38,631 nt of DNA, from positions 1 through 38,631 of the forward strand of contig JAPLKI010000004.1 of assembly GCA_026388155.1 (NCBI GenBank), given 5' to 3'. Made by a program: the position numbers and the translations under genes. Of the stretch, positions 3,217 to 25,995 are shown one piece after another. Each line of letters starts with the position of its first letter. Positions within the stretch are counted from its first letter, which is position 1. Below the pieces are notes generated by a model. That model was not told the origin of the DNA. It ran no database searches and saw only the letters and a list, made by a program, of their open reading frames with translations. The DNA is from Elusimicrobiota bacterium. GTDB lineage: Bacteria > Elusimicrobiota > Elusimicrobia > Elusimicrobiales > UBA9959.

Positions 3217-3226
3217 AGGATTGTTA

Positions 3227-3372
3227 CATTCAGGCAGACAGAATTCAGGAGTCAGAATTCAGAATGGTGGAATTTTGCTCATCGGTGCGTCCTTATTCTG
3301 ACTAGCCTATGGCTGTGCCGTAACAGACGCTATGCGTATAAGACGGCCTTCTGAATTCTGGCTTCTGGATTC
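3227..3372. repeat. Inverted array of 7-bp units (unit AATTCAG) around an inner repeat
   Basis: The left arm (3227-3262) is made of units ending in CAG, mostly spaced 7 bp (one 8 bp), consensus AATTCAG. The right arm (3351-3371) has three 7-bp units of the complementary type (CTGAATT, CTGGATT and a variant). The 24-nt segments 3241-3264 and 3349-3372 are reverse complements at 21 of 24 positions. Between them lies a copy of the GGCCGTC repeat (3305-3348). The element fills the convergent spacer between the M16 operon and the thioesterase gene, so it may also act as a transcript end. Confidence 0.75.
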
Positions 3373-3384
3373 GCCACACTGATA

Positions 3385-4749: not shown

Positions 4750-7700
4750 ATGGAAACCGAACCGAAACTAGATCCTTCAACCATTACAGATGTGGAAACC
4801 GCCAAACTGGCTTTACGCTGGGCCGTGGAAAAAATACACTCCATGCAGGAAGAGCTGGGCCGCCTGCGCGAGGACAACCGCAACAAGGTAACGACCAACC
4901 GCTCGCTCACCGAACAGCTTGACCAGAAAACCGAAGTTTTAAAAAAATGGCAGGGGACCATAAAAACCTGGGAAGAAAACTGGAAAACCCAGACCGCCAT
5001 GGAGACGGACCTAAAGTCCAAGCTCAGGGAACAGATCTTGAATGAAGAAACCGCCAATTGGCGCCAGGCCCGGGCCCAGCTGGAAAAACAGATCCTGGCC
5101 CTTAAAGAAGCGCTGGCCGCAAAAGAGGGAGAAATCGGCCGTCTCAAGCTTAACGTTATTGACGAGCTTAGCAAGTCCTCCGAACTGAAAGAGGAAGAAC
5201 TTAACACTATTCTTAAAAAACAGCAGGATAATCTGGCCGAGCGGGAAACCGCCATGGCGGAGAAGTATGCCCGTTTTGAGCGGGAACTGATTGAAAACCA
5301 GCGTATCGCCGCCGAACAGCAGGAACTCTCCCTGAAAGAAACGTACGAAATAAAAATGAGGGAGTTTTCGAAACTATACGAACAGAAAGAAGCCCAGCTG
5401 GAGAGATTCCGCAAAGAGATAGAGGACCAGCACCTTGCAAAGATGGAAGGCCTGGAGGCGCAAAACCGGGCGCGTCTTGACGCCCTGAGGGCGGAACTGG
5501 AAGCCAGCCGGGCGAAGAAAGCGGAAGAGGCCGAAATCATTCACGCAGACCGCCTGAAATCCCTTGAAACGGCCTTTTCTGAAAAGCAGGCGGAACTGGA
5601 AAACAATTTCAGAGACAGGGAGCTTGAACTTGAAGAAAGCCACTCAAAGGAGCTTGACGCCGCCCGCCTGGCGAGAGAGCAGGAAACAACCGCGCTGCGC
5701 GACCGCATGCAGGCCTATGTGCTCAAGCGCGAGCAGGAATACATCACGCTGCGCCTTGAAATGGAGCGCCAGGTGACGGAACTGGTAAAAAACCGCGAAG
5801 CGGATATTAAGGCCGGCTACCAAAAGAACATTGAGGAAGTCAGGCAGCAATGGAACCGCCTGGCCCTTGAAAATCAGCAAAAACTGGATGCCTTGCTTAA
5901 CGAAAACAACGCCAATTGGAAGGCCCGCTGGGAAAAACGGGAAGAGGAACTGACCGCCGCCAAAGCCGCGGAAATAAGGACCGCTGTCGATAAAGCCCAG
6001 GAGCGGCTTAATCACCAGGAAGCGGCGCTGCGCGAAACGCTGCTCCGCGAACAAAACGAATGGCTGGCGGCCCGTGACGCCGCAATGGCGGAAGTGAAAA
6101 AAGCGCTTGAAAAAAGCCACGCCGAAAGATTTGAAATCGCGCAAAAGAACCTTGAAACCGCCTATCTGGAAAAAGAAAAAACCATGTTTAGCCGGATGGC
6201 CGCGGCGCAGAAAAAGATCCGGGCGAAATGGCAGGCCAGGGAAGAAGAATGGCTGCTTGAAAAAGAGACTGCCGCCAATGAAGAAAGAGAAAAACTTAAA
6301 GCGGAATTTTCCGCCTATCGCCAGACGCTGAAAGAAAAACTGACGCAGGTCGAAGATGAATTAAAGCTTAATTACGCCGAGAAAGAAGAACACCTTGACT
6401 ACTCCGCCAGAGAAGCGCAGAAAAGAAAAGAAGCGGAGCTTTGCGCCGCGTTCGCTAAAAAGGAAGCTGAGGCGAAAACCCGCGCTGAACAGGAAATGCG
6501 CCGCCTGGCCGCCGAAGCCGCCAAAAGCCTGTCCGCCGCCGAGAAAGAACAGGCGCTGGTTCTGGAAGCTCTCAAAAAAGAATTTGAGCGGCAGCAGGCC
6601 GAAAAAGCCGCGGCCTTTGAACAGGAAAAGGCGAGGTTCTTTAAGGCGAATCCCAGCCTGGAAGAAAAACACGCAGCGGCCGTTGAAAACCTTAAAAATG
6701 AATTTGAACAAAGGATGGCGCAAAAAGCCGCCGCCTTTGAAGAGGAAAAGCTGAGGCTCCTTGAGGCCAATTCCGGACTGAAAGAAAAACATGCCGCGGC
6801 CGTTGAAAACATTAAAATGGCGTTTGAACAAAAGCAGGCACAAAAAGCCGCCGCCTTTGAAGAGGAAAGGCTGAAGCTCCTTGAGGAAAATGCCAATCTG
6901 GAAAAAAGACAGGCTGCGCCTGTTGAAAACCTTAAAATGGAATTTGAACAAAGGATGGCGAAAAAAGCCGCCGCCTTTGAAGAGGAAAAGCAAAAGCTAC
7001 TTGCCTCCAAAAACGACGCCGAGGCCGTCTGGGCCGCCAAAGCCGAAGCCCGTGAACTTGAATTTGAGAGCAGACTAAAGGCTGAGCGCTCAAGGCTCGC
7101 CGAGGCCAATAAAGTCAGGGAGACGAACCTGAAAAACCGCGAAGCGGAGATCGAACAGCTTAAAAACGCCAACCAGCAGGAATACAACGAACTGAAGATA
7201 GCGCTCTACCAGGAAATGCAGGGCAAGGAACATGAGCTGTTTTCAAAGCTTGCGGCCGCCAAAGAAGAGATGTATAAGGCGGTGAATGACCGCGGCGCCG
7301 TGATGGACAGGGAATACAACGCGCGCTTAACCCAGCTGCGGGGCAAAGAGACCGAGTTGGCGGAGCGCTTCGAAGAAAAGAACCGGCAGACCCTGGAAGC
7401 GATCAAAAAACAGAAACAGGACGAGTTTGACCGGCTGACGCTGGAGTTCGAGAGCCGCGCCGCGGAACTTGAGAACCGGTTTAAAAACCGCGAGCAGGCG
7501 CTTAACGCGTCCTTCTCCGAGCGCCTTGCAAAAATGGAAGCGGACTTCAGCGGCAAAGAAAAAGAATTTTCGGACGGCCAGGAGAAGGCCCTTGCCAAAC
7601 GGCGGCAGGAACTGGAAACCGCGGCGAGACAAAAAGAAAAAGAGCTTGAAAAAAAGTACTCAGACCTTACCCAAAGCTTCTACACGGAAACCCAGAAAGA

Positions 7701-11885: not shown

Positions 11886-11894
11886 CAGCAGGGA

Positions 11895-11963
11895 CTAGCG
11901 TAGAGGGGCTAGGGGTTTAGGGAAGGTATTTCTTTCCCTCTCCCCTCTACGCTAGCCTCTCGC
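11895..11963. repeat. Inverted array of 7-bp units (CTAGCGT/AGAGGGG type)
   Basis: Perfect 14-bp arms (11895-11908 and 11942-11955) sit inside longer 7-bp-phased arms: left 11895-11922, right 11936-11963. The right arm shares the 11-mer CGCTAGCCTCT with the array at 18372-18382 beside the four-helix-bundle gene. It fills the spacer between the pyruvoyl ADC and agmatinase genes, so its hairpin lies inside the likely mRNA. Confidence 0.8.
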
Positions 11964-11976
11964 CACTGTACCTATT

Positions 11977-16151: not shown

Positions 16152-16166
16152 ATCAACTCCCTTTTA

Positions 16167-16287
16167 GCCGGATAAAGACTGCCATACGCCATAAGGGCGC
16201 TGCGCCCGCCATAAGCCATATGCCAGAGGCCATAAGCTATAAGGAAACTCCTGAAAAAGCATATGGTATACGGCTTATCGCAATGGC
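16167..16287. repeat. Inverted array of 7-bp units (GCCATAA)
   Basis: The left arm (16181-16242) has seven 7-bp units close to GCCATAA, interrupted by a 13-nt perfect palindrome (GGGCGC-t-GCGCCC, 16195-16207). The unit phase extends left to GCCGGAT (16167). The right arm (16260-16287) carries four degenerate units of the complementary TTATGGC type. It fills the spacer between the dehydrogenase-like gene and the unknown membrane protein. Confidence 0.75.
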
Positions 16288-16298
16288 TGTATCTATTG

Positions 16299-17897
16299 TT
16301 ACCCCACCGATACTTCCTCAATGCGCCTTATGCCGGCCTTGTTAAGCACTATCCTTATGCGGTCGTAATGCACGCTTTCCCTGCCGGCCTTTGAGGCGTA
16401 AATATATTTAAGCACCAGGTTCACATGATAAACCCTGGGACAGGAAATAATTTTTATCCCGCCGGAGGCGGGGTCGACCACGGGGTAATCCACCTCCGGA
16501 TCGTCGGCCTGCTTTGTAAAATTCTCAATACTGAAGCGCATTATGTCGTTCAGATCTTTGCGGCGGTCATGATGAGCACGTATCCGTTCGGGGTACAGGC
16601 GTATCTCTTTTTTGTATTTGAAAACGCGCTCCGGCTTGCCGTCTTCGTCTATGGAGGTGATGTCGTCAACGCGCCTCAGGCGCGAAATATCGGCCGGCAC
16701 ATGCCGCTCGGGCATGAAAGTGAACGCCTCTTTAAGCAGGCCTATGCGCTTGCCGGTGGAGGGGTCAAGTATGCTTATCTTCCGATCGGAGGTCCAGCGC
16801 GTGAGATTTTTCGAAAAAAGCACTTTCAGCCAGTCCTTTATGCGGTCCTTGAACATATAGCTTATCACCACGGCAAACAGGAAAGGCAGGCTGTTCATGG
16901 TGTAGCGGTTCTGAACGTAAAAGCTGATCAGCACGGCGAACAGCATGGCGAGGCCCGCCGCCATGCTGAACAGCACCTGCGTGAGGGTTTCCCATTCTGA
17001 GGTCTCGGTTTTAAGGTAGAGAACGCTTGAAATAAATTTTTTCAAAACTCCGCGGCGGTAAATAATAACCTCGTTGCCGGTTAAATTTTCGAGCACCGAG
17101 GGGTAATTCATAGCCGCTCTGTAGCGCCCCTGCGCCACTATAACCGATACAAGTTCGTCCTCCGTCTCCTTAAGCCCTTCCCGCTCGCTTACATTTTTCC
17201 TGAGCGCGTCAAGCACCAGGGTCAGGTATTCCTCAATTATCAAACTGACATATTCGTCAAAAAAAGCGAAGGTTTCTTTTATTACCGTAGGCACGGCGGG
17301 ATCGGCAACCGAGCTTTTAAGCACGGCGACAGCCGTGATCAGCTGCCTGATCTCGGCAAGAAAATTCCGCAGGCTCTCGGGCACGAATAATTGCTTTGGC
17401 TGGTCCCGCCCTTTTGGATCCGGAATCCCCGGACCAAAAGAGCGGGGCTGCTCGGCATTTTTGGCGCCGTAGGTTTTAAAGCCCTCAATAAGCGCCTTGG
17501 CGTAGTCGCGGGTCTCGCCCCTTATAACGCAGCCCAGCAGCTTGAACTCGTCATAAACGGTTTTCACAAGCTCGCGGTCCTTTGAGCCCGCAAGTATAAG
17601 CGACAACTTTTCTTTTATGCGCGTAAGCGGAGAGGTTTCAAGCGACGGATCGCAGATCTTTGAGAGGCTTACCTTTGGGGTTTTAAAACGGATATAGCGC
17701 TGTATATCGTTATAAAAATTTTCCTTTGAATAGGAATGCGGCCCGATATTAAGCGCCTTGGGCACAAAAAAATATGTCTCAACCGAATAGGTGCTCTCCA
17801 GGCCCGCGTCAAGGTCGATATCCAGCTTTATCTCAAAGCGGTGCCGGTCGTGGAATTGCACGCGCGAGTCAAAAATATCGTTTTGGTCTTCGATCAT
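16299..17897 (-). CDS. Unknown protein with two central membrane segments
   Basis: A 532-residue protein of no family I recognise. The N-terminal ~300 residues are soluble and helical, with a region rich in aromatic and charged residues (FHDRHRFEIKLDIDLD near the start). Two adjacent hydrophobic segments at about 306-326 and 331-348 predict a membrane hairpin, so both large domains would face the same side, probably the cytoplasm. The C-terminal ~180 residues contain HHDRRKDLNDIMRFSIENFTKQ and a beta-rich end. Its ATG overlaps the stop of the upstream four-helix-bundle gene (ATGA), so it is translationally coupled to it. Function unknown. Confidence 0.8.
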   Translation of the reverse strand: MIEDQNDIFDSRVQFHDRHRFEIKLDIDLDAGLESTYSVETYFFVPKALNIGPHSYSKENFYNDIQRYIRFKTPKVSLSKICDPSLETSPLTRIKEKLSLILAGSKDRELVKTVYDEFKLLGCVIRGETRDYAKALIEGFKTYGAKNAEQPRSFGPGIPDPKGRDQPKQLFVPESLRNFLAEIRQLITAVAVLKSSVADPAVPTVIKETFAFFDEYVSLIIEEYLTLVLDALRKNVSEREGLKETEDELVSVIVAQGRYRAAMNYPSVLENLTGNEVIIYRRGVLKKFISSVLYLKTETSEWETLTQVLFSMAAGLAMLFAVLISFYVQNRYTMNSLPFLFAVVISYMFKDRIKDWLKVLFSKNLTRWTSDRKISILDPSTGKRIGLLKEAFTFMPERHVPADISRLRRVDDITSIDEDGKPERVFKYKKEIRLYPERIRAHHDRRKDLNDIMRFSIENFTKQADDPEVDYPVVDPASGGIKIISCPRVYHVNLVLKYIYASKAGRESVHYDRIRIVLNKAGIRRIEEVSVG

Positions 17898-18334
17898 AGT
17901 TTCACGTCAGAGGATAGCGTAGTGACTCTGGCCTGTCGCGGGCCTCTGGCGTAGTCCGCGACTGAGAGGCGAGCGGTGAGAGACCTCATCATTGCGCATG
18001 TCATTTTTTGGATTTCCGTTATCGTGCTTTTCACAGCTTCACCCCTGTCAGACTTTTCAGTGTACCCCAAATTCCCGGCGATTTCCATAAAAGTATCCAG
18101 CTCCGCCAGCGAACCGCTGGCAATATTAAGGAAGTGCAGGAACTCTTTGGTGCCGCTTCGCGTCCAGCCCTCCGCTATATTGGCCGGCACGGAAGCCGCC
18201 GCCCTGCGCATCTGGTTCACCAGCCCAAACCTTTCCTCTTGGGGAAAAACACCGCTTAGTGCATAAACATCTCTGGTAAGAACAATACCTTTTTTCCAAA
18301 CCTCAAGTTCCTTATAACTCCGTATCTTCCCCAT
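17894..18334 (-). CDS. Four-helix-bundle protein of the S23 / Avd-like family, with repeat-encoded tail
   Basis: A 146-residue small helical protein of the S23 (23S rRNA intervening-sequence) / Avd-like four-helix-bundle family. The family signature is clear: YKELEVWKKGIVLT near the N-terminus, then FGLVNQMRRAAASVPANIAEG (about 36-56) and KEFLHFLNIASGSLAELDT. Relatives usually end shortly after the last helix (here IQKMTCAMMRSL, about residue 119). The remaining ~26 residues are encoded by an array of 7-bp repeats (17908-17984), so the C-terminus looks like a read-through into repeat DNA. A second array (18346-18394) lies just upstream. Known relatives bind nucleic acid in diversity-generating retroelements or are carried in rRNA insertions; no reverse transcriptase is visible here. 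Confidence 0.88.
   Translation of the reverse strand: MGKIRSYKELEVWKKGIVLTRDVYALSGVFPQEERFGLVNQMRRAAASVPANIAEGWTRSGTKEFLHFLNIASGSLAELDTFMEIAGNLGYTEKSDRGEAVKSTITEIQKMTCAMMRSLTARLSVADYARGPRQARVTTLSSDVKL
17908..17984. repeat. 7-bp-unit array inside the 3' end of the four-helix-bundle gene
   Basis: Eleven consecutive 7-nt units, including GAGAGGC, GAGCGGT and GAGAGAC at 17964-17984 and TAGCGTA at 17915. Internal complementarity includes GTCGCGG/CCGCGAC (17935-17941/17956-17962). The GAGAGGC side is complementary to the CTAGCCT/CTGCCTC side of the array upstream of the same gene. Confidence 0.65.
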
Positions 18335-18345
18335 AAGTTCCCCCT

Positions 18346-18394
18346 TCCTTCCCCAACCGCTAACCCCTCGCCGCTAGCCTCTGCCTCTCCCCTA
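18346..18394. repeat. 7-bp-unit array upstream of the four-helix-bundle gene, covering the xerD stop
   Basis: Seven 7-nt units such as CTAACCC, CTCGCCG, CTAGCCT and CTGCCTC. The last unit contains the complement of the xerD stop codon (18392-18394). It shares CGCTAGCCTCT with the solo inverted array at 11950-11960. Confidence 0.7.
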
Positions 18395-19279: not shown

Positions 19280-19290
19280 TTTAGGACAGG

Positions 19291-19393
19291 AATCAGTAAC
19301 CAGTGACCGGTATCCAGTAACCAGTATAAAAGTTGAGTATAAAATTCACCGATTAATTAAATTATACTGGTTACCGATAACTGATTACCGGTT
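19291..19393. repeat. Inverted array of 7-bp units (AACCAGT), xerD-recA spacer
   Basis: This is the clearest array. Five contiguous 7-bp units at 19291-19325 have consensus AACCAGT. After a 40-nt AT-rich centre, four contiguous units at 19366-19393 have consensus ACTGGTT, its exact reverse complement. Units within an arm differ by one or two bases. The 12 nt next to the centre are perfectly paired and the outer units pair imperfectly. The transcript would form a long hairpin just after recA. Confidence 0.9.
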
Positions 19394-19403
19394 ACCATTG
19401 TTT

Positions 19404-24171: not shown

Positions 24172-25995
24172 ATGTTTACGATCCGCAATAATATTTCCGA
24201 CGCACCGGCTGAAAGCCGTTTTTTTACGGGTTTAACGCCTTATGTGTGCCTTTTGCTGTTGATAAGCGTCGTTTACGCGCATGCGGTTTTTTTTGGTTTC
24301 TCATATCTTGACGACAATAACCTGATCCTTGATAATTTTCACTTTCTGGGAGATCTCTCCAACTTTTTTAAGGCTTTCCAGCGGGATGTTTTTGGCGCGG
24401 CGAACGAATTTTATTACAGGCCGCTGATGACCATATCGCTGATGATAGACGCCCGGTTCGGCGGCACGGCGCCATGGGCTTATCACCTCACCAACATATT
24501 GATACATTCCGCCTCTTCATGCCTGCTCCTGGTCCTTCTGCGCCGGCTCGGCTGCGCACGGTTCCCGTCGTTCTTATGTTCGGCTTTTTTCGCCGTTCAT
24601 CCGGCCCTGTGCCAGGCGGTCGCCTGGATCCCGGGCAGGAACGACTCCCTGCTGGCGCTTTTCATCCTTCCGGCTTTCATCTTCTTCATCGATTACGCCG
24701 CGCAGAGAAAAACCCTCCATCTGGCGCTGCATCTTTTGTTTTTTTTACTCGCCCTGCTCACAAAAGAGACCGCTCTGGTTTTGCTCGTCTTATGCCCTTT
24801 GTACATGCTTCTGATTGCGCGGAAACGTATTTTCGAACCGCGCAACCTGCCGGTTTTTATCGGGTGGACAGCGGCAGCCTGCGGATGGTTTATTCTCCGT
24901 AAAGCGGCTTTCCTGCATCCTGTCCAATACGCGCCGGAGTATATGTTACGGTCTTTTTTCACGAATCTGCCCGCCGTTATGCTGTACACAGGCAAGTTTT
25001 TATTCCCGTTCAATCTTTCCGTTCTTCCGATTTTGCGCGATAACACCCCGATTTACGGATATATCGCATCGGCTCTTATTTTCATGCTTTTATATTGTTC
25101 AAAAAATGCGGACAGGAAGCGCGCGGCTTTCGGATTGTTATGGTTTCTGCTTTTCCTGCTGCCCGGCTTTCTGCGGCCTAATTCCGATCTGCCGGCCGAT
25201 TTCATAGAGCACAGAATGTATGTGCCGGCTCTGGGGTTTATCCTTCTGCTGCTTGAGACAAACGCGGTAAAAAACCTTGTTTTCGGCAAAAACCCGGGCA
25301 CGTTCCTTGCGGGACTGATACTGGTTTTATTTTCCGTTATTAACGTTTTCTACAGCGCCAACTTTAAGAATTCATACAATTTCTGGAACAACGCCGTGAC
25401 ACATTCACCGGAGTATCACCTGACCCAGTGCAATTTCGGCCTTGAACTGGCGATGAAGGGCGACTTAACCCATGCCATAGAGCATTATCAGGAAGCATTG
25501 AAACTTAATCCCGCTTATCCAGATGCTCACAATAATCTCGGCATCGCGTTGGCCAAACAGGGGAAGTTTGAACAAGCTGTTTTGGAGTACAGGGAGGCAT
25601 TGCGGTTGAACCCGTACCTGGCGGAAACACACGATCAATTGGGGCTTGCCTTAAGCGCTCAGGGTAAAGTGGACGAGGCTGTCGCGCATTATCGCGAAGC
25701 ATTGCGGCTCAAGCCGGACGATGTGGAAGTTCATAATAACTGGGGACTTGCTTTAAGCGCTCAGGGCAAAACCGAGGAAGCTATAGCGCATTACCGCGAA
25801 GCATTGCGGCTTAAGCCGGACCTGGCGCCGGTTCATAATAACTGGGGCATGACTCTGGCTTACTCCGGCAGGATGGATGAGGCTATACAACATTTCCGTG
25901 AAGCCCTTAAAATTCTCCCGAATTACGCGACTGCCCGAACAAACCTGAACACAGCTTTGAAGGTAAAACAGAAAAGCCATAGCCGCGGACAATAA
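24172..25995 (+). CDS. GT-C-like polytopic membrane protein with C-terminal TPRs
   Basis: A 607-residue protein with about nine to eleven hydrophobic segments (residues ~25-400) followed by five TPR units (about 415-595). The N-terminal luminal loop carries an Asp pair (FSYLDDNN), then YYRPL, HLTNILIH and the HPALCQAVAWIPGRND block typical of TMTC/GT-C lipid-linked mannosyl-transferase relatives. Such proteins transfer sugars from polyprenyl-phosphate donors in the periplasm; here activity is inferred. The TPR units repeat at the DNA level with a 102-bp period (25597, 25699, 25801), indicating recent duplication. It is paralogous to the gene at 30395-32146. It converges on glgB across a highly structured spacer. 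Confidence 0.82.
   Translation: MFTIRNNISDAPAESRFFTGLTPYVCLLLLISVVYAHAVFFGFSYLDDNNLILDNFHFLGDLSNFFKAFQRDVFGAANEFYYRPLMTISLMIDARFGGTAPWAYHLTNILIHSASSCLLLVLLRRLGCARFPSFLCSAFFAVHPALCQAVAWIPGRNDSLLALFILPAFIFFIDYAAQRKTLHLALHLLFFLLALLTKETALVLLVLCPLYMLLIARKRIFEPRNLPVFIGWTAAACGWFILRKAAFLHPVQYAPEYMLRSFFTNLPAVMLYTGKFLFPFNLSVLPILRDNTPIYGYIASALIFMLLYCSKNADRKRAAFGLLWFLLFLLPGFLRPNSDLPADFIEHRMYVPALGFILLLLETNAVKNLVFGKNPGTFLAGLILVLFSVINVFYSANFKNSYNFWNNAVTHSPEYHLTQCNFGLELAMKGDLTHAIEHYQEALKLNPAYPDAHNNLGIALAKQGKFEQAVLEYREALRLNPYLAETHDQLGLALSAQGKVDEAVAHYREALRLKPDDVEVHNNWGLALSAQGKTEEAIAHYREALRLKPDLAPVHNNWGMTLAYSGRMDEAIQHFREALKILPNYATARTNLNTALKVKQKSHSRGQ

What the first reader, a model, noticed from the sequence alone, without database searches (positions are those of the whole stretch)
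17894..18394. S23/Avd-like four-helix-bundle gene flanked by heptamer arrays: candidate REP/RAYT-like system
The small four-helix-bundle gene has an array at its 3' end (17908-17984) and another just upstream (18346-18394). The two are partly complementary (GAGAGGC side against GCCTCT side) and share CGCTAGCCTCT with the solo array at 11950-11960. A gene framed by the repeat that also occurs alone elsewhere is the classic layout of an autonomous copy with non-autonomous derivatives. S23-type proteins are known from mobile-looking rRNA insertions and, as Avd, from retroelements, so a role in repeat spread is plausible but untested.
Basis: inference. Interest (0 to 1): 0.82.

Follow-up and report, generated by a model that had tools for sequence, protein, structure and literature searches.

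The report
Small mobile elements with repeat-array ends
A tiny bacterial gene of unknown function (S23, "four helix bundle protein") turns out, in many phyla, to be the only gene of a small inserted DNA element whose two ends are mirror-image arrays of 7- or 8-base repeats, and genomes that carry it are littered with gene-less copies of those ends, which points to a family of mobile elements with no recognisable transposase.

Summary
The window's S23 gene (17894-18334, minus strand) is real (PF05635, TIGR02436) and has inverted repeat-rich flanks, but this copy is degenerate and alone proves little. Its relatives are decisive. Of 131 S23 loci, 77 have period-7 or -8 arrays on both sides in inverted orientation; 6 of 2,472 control positions do. 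Unit sequences differ between loci but share an oriented NNNNNAG pattern. Gene-less ("solo") arrays are about twelve times denser in 12 S23-bearing relatives than in 12 S23-less ones, without overlap, and resemble the S23 arms of their own genome. Cyanobacterial plasmids 91-98% identical show the ~420-bp element present or absent at exact sites, once with a clean 5-bp target duplication. S23 evolves under purifying selection. DGR Avd proteins, the same fold, lack arrays; reverse transcriptase is absent from several S23-rich genomes; RAYT counts do not predict arrays. Closest known: the 23S-rRNA intervening sequence, whose Coxiella copy has GACAGAT heptamers before S23. Shown: a mobile-type element. 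Inferred: that S23 binds the arrays and drives spread. The strand-transfer chemistry is unknown.

The parts
17894..18334 (-). S23 / 23S_rRNA_IVP four-helix-bundle gene (146 aa), the only ORF of the element
   Evidence: Pfam PF05635 117.9 bits, TIGR02436 116 bits; closest family proteins L029 (54%) and L014 (52%)
18335..18394 (-). upstream arm (degenerate): GGGGAGAGGCAGAGGCTAGCGGCGAGGGGTTAGCGG on the gene's strand
   Evidence: aligns with the solo array 11887-11926 and with the arm of the S23 homologue L014 (score 20)
17908..17984 (-). downstream arm (degenerate, rearranged), overlapping the 3' end of the ORF
   Evidence: 16-nt inverted match to the upstream arm
11890..11960 (.). solo inverted array, unit family GCGTAGA/GGGGCTA, same family as the window S23 arms
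   Evidence: inverted repeat 25 nt, 84%; match to the S23 arm; same-genus G001 has a different-unit hairpin at this site
3239..3372 (.). solo inverted array, unit CAGAATT
   Evidence: dozens of dispersed similar copies in G001 and G002; S23-bearing version with this unit in G001 (L279)
16187..16299 (.). solo inverted array, unit GCCATAA, same unit as the S23 element L003 elsewhere in this genome
   Evidence: about 48 similar copies in G002 but one in G001; no array at this site in G001 and an 8-mer hairpin in G002
19287..19396 (.). solo inverted array between recA and xer, unit CCAGTAA
   Evidence: inverted repeat 34 nt, 76%; conserved in G002; S23-bearing versions with this kind of unit in G015 and G006 (L297, L292)

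Best explanation
The S23 gene of the window is a worn copy of a small transposable element. An intact element is about 420-450 bp: a 5' arm of tandem 7-nt (or 8-nt) units, one ORF (S23), and a 3' arm that is the inverted copy of the 5' arm, inserted mostly between genes of an operon. Arms without the gene are non-autonomous, MITE-like derivatives. The mechanism I consider most likely: the pentameric S23 protein binds the repeated NNNNNAG units (cruciform or single-stranded hairpin DNA, or the RNA hairpin), brings the two ends together, and lets the element or gene-less arms insert elsewhere, probably with host nucleases and replication supplying the chemistry. Unit copy number changes by heptamer gain or loss and drifts in concert, so each S23 lineage keeps its own unit. 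Shown: architecture, dependence of arrays on S23, shared units within a genome, precise insertion. Inferred: binding, trans-mobilisation, and who cuts the DNA.
For: Both-arm inverted arrays at 77/131 S23 loci versus 6/2472 controls, across many phyla and at 11/11 cyanobacterial plasmid copies examined. The two arms match each other inverted (5-mer cosine 0.44) but not directly (0.09) nor to other loci (0.04). Oriented unit motif NNNNNAG in 49 independent 7-mer families; AG>CT in 76/85 upstream arms. Solo arrays 17.7 vs 1.5 per 100 kb in S23+ vs S23- genomes, 12 vs 12 without overlap, p=1.4e-5; rho 0.83 with S23 number. Solo units resemble the S23 arms of the same genome (0.104 vs 0.040, permutation p=0.0002); G025 has one S23 with 8-mer arms and all 7 solo arrays are 8-mers of that unit. 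Solo arrays have inverted partners 74/136 vs 4/136 null. Arm similarity follows protein identity within Elusimicrobiota (r=0.31) and across phyla (r=0.14), p=0.0005 each. Presence/absence at exact sites: empty AAAAAGTAATTAAC vs filled with GTAAT duplicated; pNsp plasmids; coxM|coxS 5-23 nt without and ~450 nt with the element. dN/dS 0.10-0.14.
Against: No catalytic motif is known in S23. Only one insertion gave a clean 5-bp duplication; at the pNsp site it is at most 4 bp or absent, and other sites have small flank changes. Two predictions failed: the second S23 genes of G016 (L124) and G020 (L298) do not carry the units of those genomes' orphan solo arrays. Several solo families in G000 (AGCGAAT, CAGAATT, CCAGTAA) have no cognate S23 in that genome. 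No binding or transposition was tested. The co-occurrence genomes are related and are not fully independent samples.
Confidence: 0.68

Rival explanations
1. S23 is a passenger. The inverted arrays are the real mobile or foldback element, moved in trans by another transposase (for example RAYT/Y1 or another IS), and S23 is cargo or a silencer that protects the hairpin.
For: S23 has no known catalytic motif; a 5-bp duplication is typical of transposases; many arrays lack the gene.
Against: S23 is the only ORF between the arms, is conserved under purifying selection, and its presence and number predict array density while Y1_Tnp does not; RVT_1 is absent from S23-rich genomes. Other transposases were not screened.
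Confidence: 0.17
2. Arrays arise locally by replication slippage or template switching in intergenic hairpins. S23 binds and stabilises them or their RNA, so that genomes with S23 accumulate them; the gene spreads by homologous recombination between arrays rather than by transposition.
For: Arms differ by whole heptamers (L318 lacks exactly 14 nt present in L301); units differ between orthologous sites within one genus, as expected for fast local turnover.
Against: The whole element appears at sites that are array-free in 97-98% identical plasmids; dispersed copies of one unit family number in the tens per genome and differ sharply between species (48 vs 1 for GCCATAA).
Confidence: 0.12
3. Regulatory reading: the arrays are host RNA-processing or translational control hairpins and S23 is their RNA-binding regulator, with no mobility.
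For: Arrays sit between operon genes; RNase III cuts the corresponding stem of the Coxiella intervening sequence (PMC4990558); MacGregor proposed translational control for TAACTGA arrays (PMC4679880).
Against: Sites and units are not conserved even within a genus; presence/absence in near-identical plasmids; no common function of neighbouring genes.
Confidence: 0.05
4. Chance or base-composition artefact.
For: The window copy on its own is weak.
Against: Control periods 5, 10, 11, 13 are near zero; 77/131 vs 6/2472.
Confidence: 0.01

Closest known systems
23S rRNA intervening sequence (IVS) encoding S23p, e.g. Coxiella burnetii (PMC4990558)
   Same: Same protein family, similar size (428 nt), terminal inverted repeats forming a stem, and tandem heptamers (GACAGAT) just upstream of the S23 ORF with strain-variable copy number; called a selfish element, with mobility suggested by Ralph and McClelland 1993 as cited there.
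   Different: Located in rRNA helices and excised from RNA. The elements here lie between protein genes, their arms are arrays on both sides with locus-specific units, and they come with many gene-less derivatives. The paper treats the heptamers as a local feature.
REP/RAYT and REPIN systems
   Same: One gene copy with many dispersed gene-less palindromic derivatives of matching sequence in the same genome.
   Different: RAYT is a Y1 HUH transposase with fixed-sequence REP ends; S23 is an unrelated four-helix bundle, and ends are arrays of freely differing 7/8-nt units. Y1 genes do not track the arrays.
Diversity-generating retroelement accessory protein Avd (bAvd, PF22296)
   Same: Same fold and remote homology (15 of 20 S23 proteins hit the Avd model).
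   Different: Avd sits beside a reverse transcriptase and lacks arrays (L006 in this genome, L023); S23 elements need no reverse transcriptase.
Heptanucleotide repeats described in bacteria (TAACTGA arrays of Beggiatoaceae, Cyanobacteria and Bacteroidetes, PMC4679880)
   Same: Intergenic heptamer arrays, patchy across phyla, indels in 7-nt steps, origin unexplained; related to the window's CCAGTAA family.
   Different: Described as direct repeats with a possible regulatory role; the paper has no mention of S23.
MITEs and foldback transposons
   Same: Short, inverted ends, gene-less copies mobilised in trans (proposed here).
   Different: Known ones depend on a recognisable transposase; none is encoded here.

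Membership tests
PF05635 / TIGR02436 four helix bundle (S23) protein | profile match above curated cut-off | tested here: met
   117.9 bits vs 33.8; 116 vs 24; PDB relatives 2gsc, 2rld
23S rRNA IVS | inserted in a 23S (or 16S) rRNA gene | tested here: not met
   the window element lies between xer and a protein gene; other copies lie in cox, cas, nrd and tra operons
23S rRNA IVS | S23 ORF between complementary ends | tested here: met
   77/131 loci; window copy only weakly
23S rRNA IVS | RNase III excision | not testable with these tools
   needs RNA work
REP/RAYT | Y1 transposase encoded between the REP ends | tested here: not met
   the only ORF is S23; Y1_Tnp number does not predict arrays
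REP/RAYT | gene-less derivatives share the ends of the gene-bearing copy of the same genome | tested here: met
   0.104 vs 0.040, p=0.0002; G025 and G010 strongest; L097 shares a 30-nt identical arm
DGR / Avd | reverse transcriptase next to Avd | tested here: not met
   no RVT_1 in S23-bearing G002, G006, G003, G011, G012; the true Avd of this genome (L006) is a separate locus beside an RT
Insertion sequence / MITE | presence/absence with target-site duplication | tested here: inconclusive
   presence/absence shown; clean 5-bp GTAAT at one site; at the pNsp site at most 4 bp or none
Insertion sequence / MITE | recognisable transposase | tested here: not met
   the window ORF matches only PF05635 in Pfam

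The most novel reading that the evidence does not exclude
S23 is itself the mobility factor of a bacterial transposable-element class that uses no known transposase, recombinase or reverse transcriptase, recognises ends by a repeated 7/8-nt spacing and lineage-specific unit rather than a fixed sequence, and is the source of many of the unexplained heptanucleotide repeat arrays of bacterial genomes, the 23S rRNA intervening sequence being a special case.
Probability: 0.45. Interest if true: 0.95.

Novelty: categorically new. Interest (0 to 1): 0.88.

Why it matters
It gives a concrete candidate function to a widespread small bacterial protein of unknown role (S23, "four helix bundle protein"). 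It ties together three puzzles: what S23 in rRNA intervening sequences does, where intergenic heptamer arrays come from, and how a mobile element can spread without a known transposase. It is directly testable with cyanobacterial or Flavobacterium laboratory strains.

Tried and rejected
Alignment A1 was too diverse for the collection scan, so subgroup A2 was used; its 80 loci are biased to that subgroup and to Bacteroidota. Retroelement link: rejected because RVT_1 is missing in S23-rich genomes. RAYT link: rejected by lack of correlation. Prediction that orphan units in G016 and G020 would be explained by their second S23 genes: failed. A 5-bp duplication at the pNsp site looked likely first but more empty sites did not support it. 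Cas6|cas4 in Anabaena sp. 90 vs Dolichospermum (99% id) is not a simple empty site; nrdB/nrdA had no close empty plasmid; S23 is absent from the phage collection. Nine literature searches found no paper linking S23 genes outside rRNA with heptamer arrays; the library is open-licence papers only, so prior description elsewhere cannot be excluded. For the novelty label I weighed "new variant of a known kind" because of the rRNA intervening sequence; I chose the stronger label because a defining feature of every known element family tested failed.

Full report
What is in the window. The reported gene is real: ORF 17894-18334 on the minus strand, 146 aa, PF05635 at 117.9 bits and TIGR02436 at 116 bits. 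Its flanks hold a partly complementary pair (17965-17980 / 18367-18382, 88%) and share CGCTAGCCTCT with the solo hairpin at 11890-11960 (positions 11950 and 18372). Periodicity at this copy is weak, and the arms match each other only at about the 1-3% level of two null distributions. The window's clear arrays are elsewhere: 3239-3372 (CAGAATT), 16187-16299 (GCCATAA), 19287-19396 (CCAGTAA), each an inverted pair between genes.

Other S23 genes of the same genome. The genome (3.36 Mb, 25 contigs) has six PF05635 hits. L001, L002 and L003 have 7-nt arrays, L004 8-nt arrays, on both sides and inverted to one another, each with a different unit: GTGTAGA, CTTAGAA, GCCATAG, GGGTCTGA. The sixth, L006, is a DGR Avd (PF22296 82 bits vs PF05635 45), lies beside a reverse transcriptase and has no arrays.

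Family-wide test. In 61 relatives 20 have S23-family hits; in 150 genomes of the phylum 44 do. A scan of 84,980 species gave 80 loci, from Elusimicrobia, Omnitrophota, Bacteroidetes, Chloroflexi, Planctomycetes, Patescibacteria, Cloacimonadota and others. Flanks scored at least 11 in 47/80 (upstream) and 54/80 (downstream), nearly all period 7 or 8, against 94 of 1628 control stretches in the same loci, many of which are themselves period-7/8 arrays. With a strict test (both sides periodic and mutually inverted), 77 of 131 S23 loci pass and 6 of 2472 control positions do. The two arms of a locus resemble each other only when one is inverted (0.44 vs 0.09), and not the arms of other loci (0.04). 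Units from 49 independent 7-mer families align to NNNNNAG better than column-shuffled units (2.65 vs at most 2.22 bits), with AG in the 5' arm and CT in the 3' arm. The 18 8-mer families do not clearly exceed their null (3.25 vs at most 3.29 bits). Period is a property of the element: 66 loci are 7-nt, 24 are 8-nt, and L028 is 10-nt on both sides.

Arrays depend on S23. Sampling 12 S23-bearing and 12 S23-less relatives (20-239 kb each, S23 loci masked), 7/8-nt arrays occur at 17.7 and 1.5 per 100 kb, without overlap (p=1.4e-5); control periods are near zero. S23 number correlates (rho 0.83), Y1 transposase number does not (0.18). Solo arrays resemble the S23 arms of their own genome (0.104 vs 0.040; permutation p=0.0002). 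G025 has one S23 with 8-nt arms and all seven sampled solo arrays are 8-nt arrays of that unit; G010's GAGGGAT arms recur in about half of its solo arrays. In G004 a solo hairpin shares 30 identical bases with the arm of the S23 element one gene away. About half of solo arrays (74/136) have an inverted partner within 160 nt, against 15 direct and 4 in the null. The window's CAGAATT hairpin has dozens of similar copies in both same-genus genomes, its GCCATAA hairpin about 48 in G002 but one in G001. Orphan solo families also exist, and two predictions about them failed.

It inserts. In the cox operon, coxM and coxS are 5-23 nt apart in most relatives and about 450 nt apart with an S23 element between them in G000, G002 and G004 (580 nt in G007). 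In cyanobacterial plasmids, found by tblastn, all 11 S23 genes examined have inverted 7-nt arrays. Three filled plasmids and six empty ones share a 97-98% identical backbone: empty AAAAAGTAATTAACAAATAATTATG, filled AAAAAGTAAT-[AAATCAGAATTCAGGAG ... S23 ... CTCCTGAGTTCTTCTTT]-GTAATTAACAAATAATTATG, a clean 5-bp duplication. A second site (Nostoc pNsp_a and pC052_D filled; pNsp_c, pNsp_b and pC052_B empty) is as precise but has at most a 4-bp duplication. A truncated element (L319) and a gene-less array (L317) occupy sites that are filled in relatives. L301 and L318, the same insertion, differ by exactly two heptamers. The same S23 lineage (78-81% nucleotide identity) sits in different gene contexts in L301, L307 and L310, with dN/dS 0.10-0.14.

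Turnover. Within the window's genus, orthologous intergenic sites carry different array families or none in each species, while flanking genes are 79-88% identical. Sites are thus reused, which suggests preferred targets or replacement of one array by another; this is not explained.

How it probably works. The protein family is known from a crystal structure as a homopentameric ring of four-helix bundles (Xanthomonas S23p, 2GSC, and PMC4990558). A ring meeting a ladder of units spaced 7 or 8 nt is a natural way to recognise ends by spacing rather than by one fixed sequence; this is inference. I propose that S23 pairs the two arms and promotes insertion of the element or of gene-less arms, host enzymes doing the cutting. 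The evidence shows insertion and S23 dependence, not the biochemistry. Co-variation of arm unit and protein fits recognition but would also arise from linkage alone.

Relation to the known. The rRNA intervening sequence is the closest relative: same protein, similar size and stem, and in Coxiella GACAGAT heptamers before the ORF, a unit that fits the AG pattern. Mobility was suspected but not, in the papers I could search, linked to genome-wide arrays. TAACTGA and other heptamer arrays were reported without a source. REP/RAYT is an analogy of layout; Avd is a fold relative with a different job.

Noticed in passing
G000:C17 (L006:1459-1812) with RT at G000:C17:45666-46307: A diversity-generating retroelement (bAvd plus reverse transcriptase) in the window's genome; it served as the array-free control. 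L006:2419-2508 also carries a run of about 22 AGGC tetranucleotides.
   Followed up: partly
L022, L013, L026: The 3' array is read in frame from S23 into the N-terminal signal-peptide-like stretch of the next gene, so array units seem to supply part of a signal peptide.
   Followed up: no
L058 and L061, between xer and the next gene: S23-less relatives carry an unrelated inverted repeat (GGCAGGGGACGCTGATGACTATA...) at the same intergenic site, possibly a RAYT-type REP element.
   Followed up: no
window 3217-3384, 11886-11976, 16152-16298, 17894-18394 versus G001/G002 (L055, L056, L339-L344): Orthologous intergenic sites hold different array families in each species of one genus, so the same sites are occupied again and again.
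   Followed up: partly
L305, L306, L322: S23 elements sit inside CRISPR operons of cyanobacterial plasmids (cas6|cas4 of type I-D, cas10|cmr3 of type III-B).
   Followed up: no
L085 and L100, coxL|coxM gap: Arms extended by tandem duplication of a longer block (about 37-50 nt holding several heptamers), a second level of repeat growth.
   Followed up: no
L028 (G002:C33:44131): An S23 element whose arms are 10-nt repeats (GCAACGGAAG) on both sides.
   Followed up: no
window 6602-6991 and 25640-25887: Coding tandem repeats of 120 bp and about 102 bp inside long ORFs.
   Followed up: no
window 16299-17897: 532-aa protein beside the S23 gene with no Pfam match, conserved next to xer and recA across the family.
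   Followed up: no
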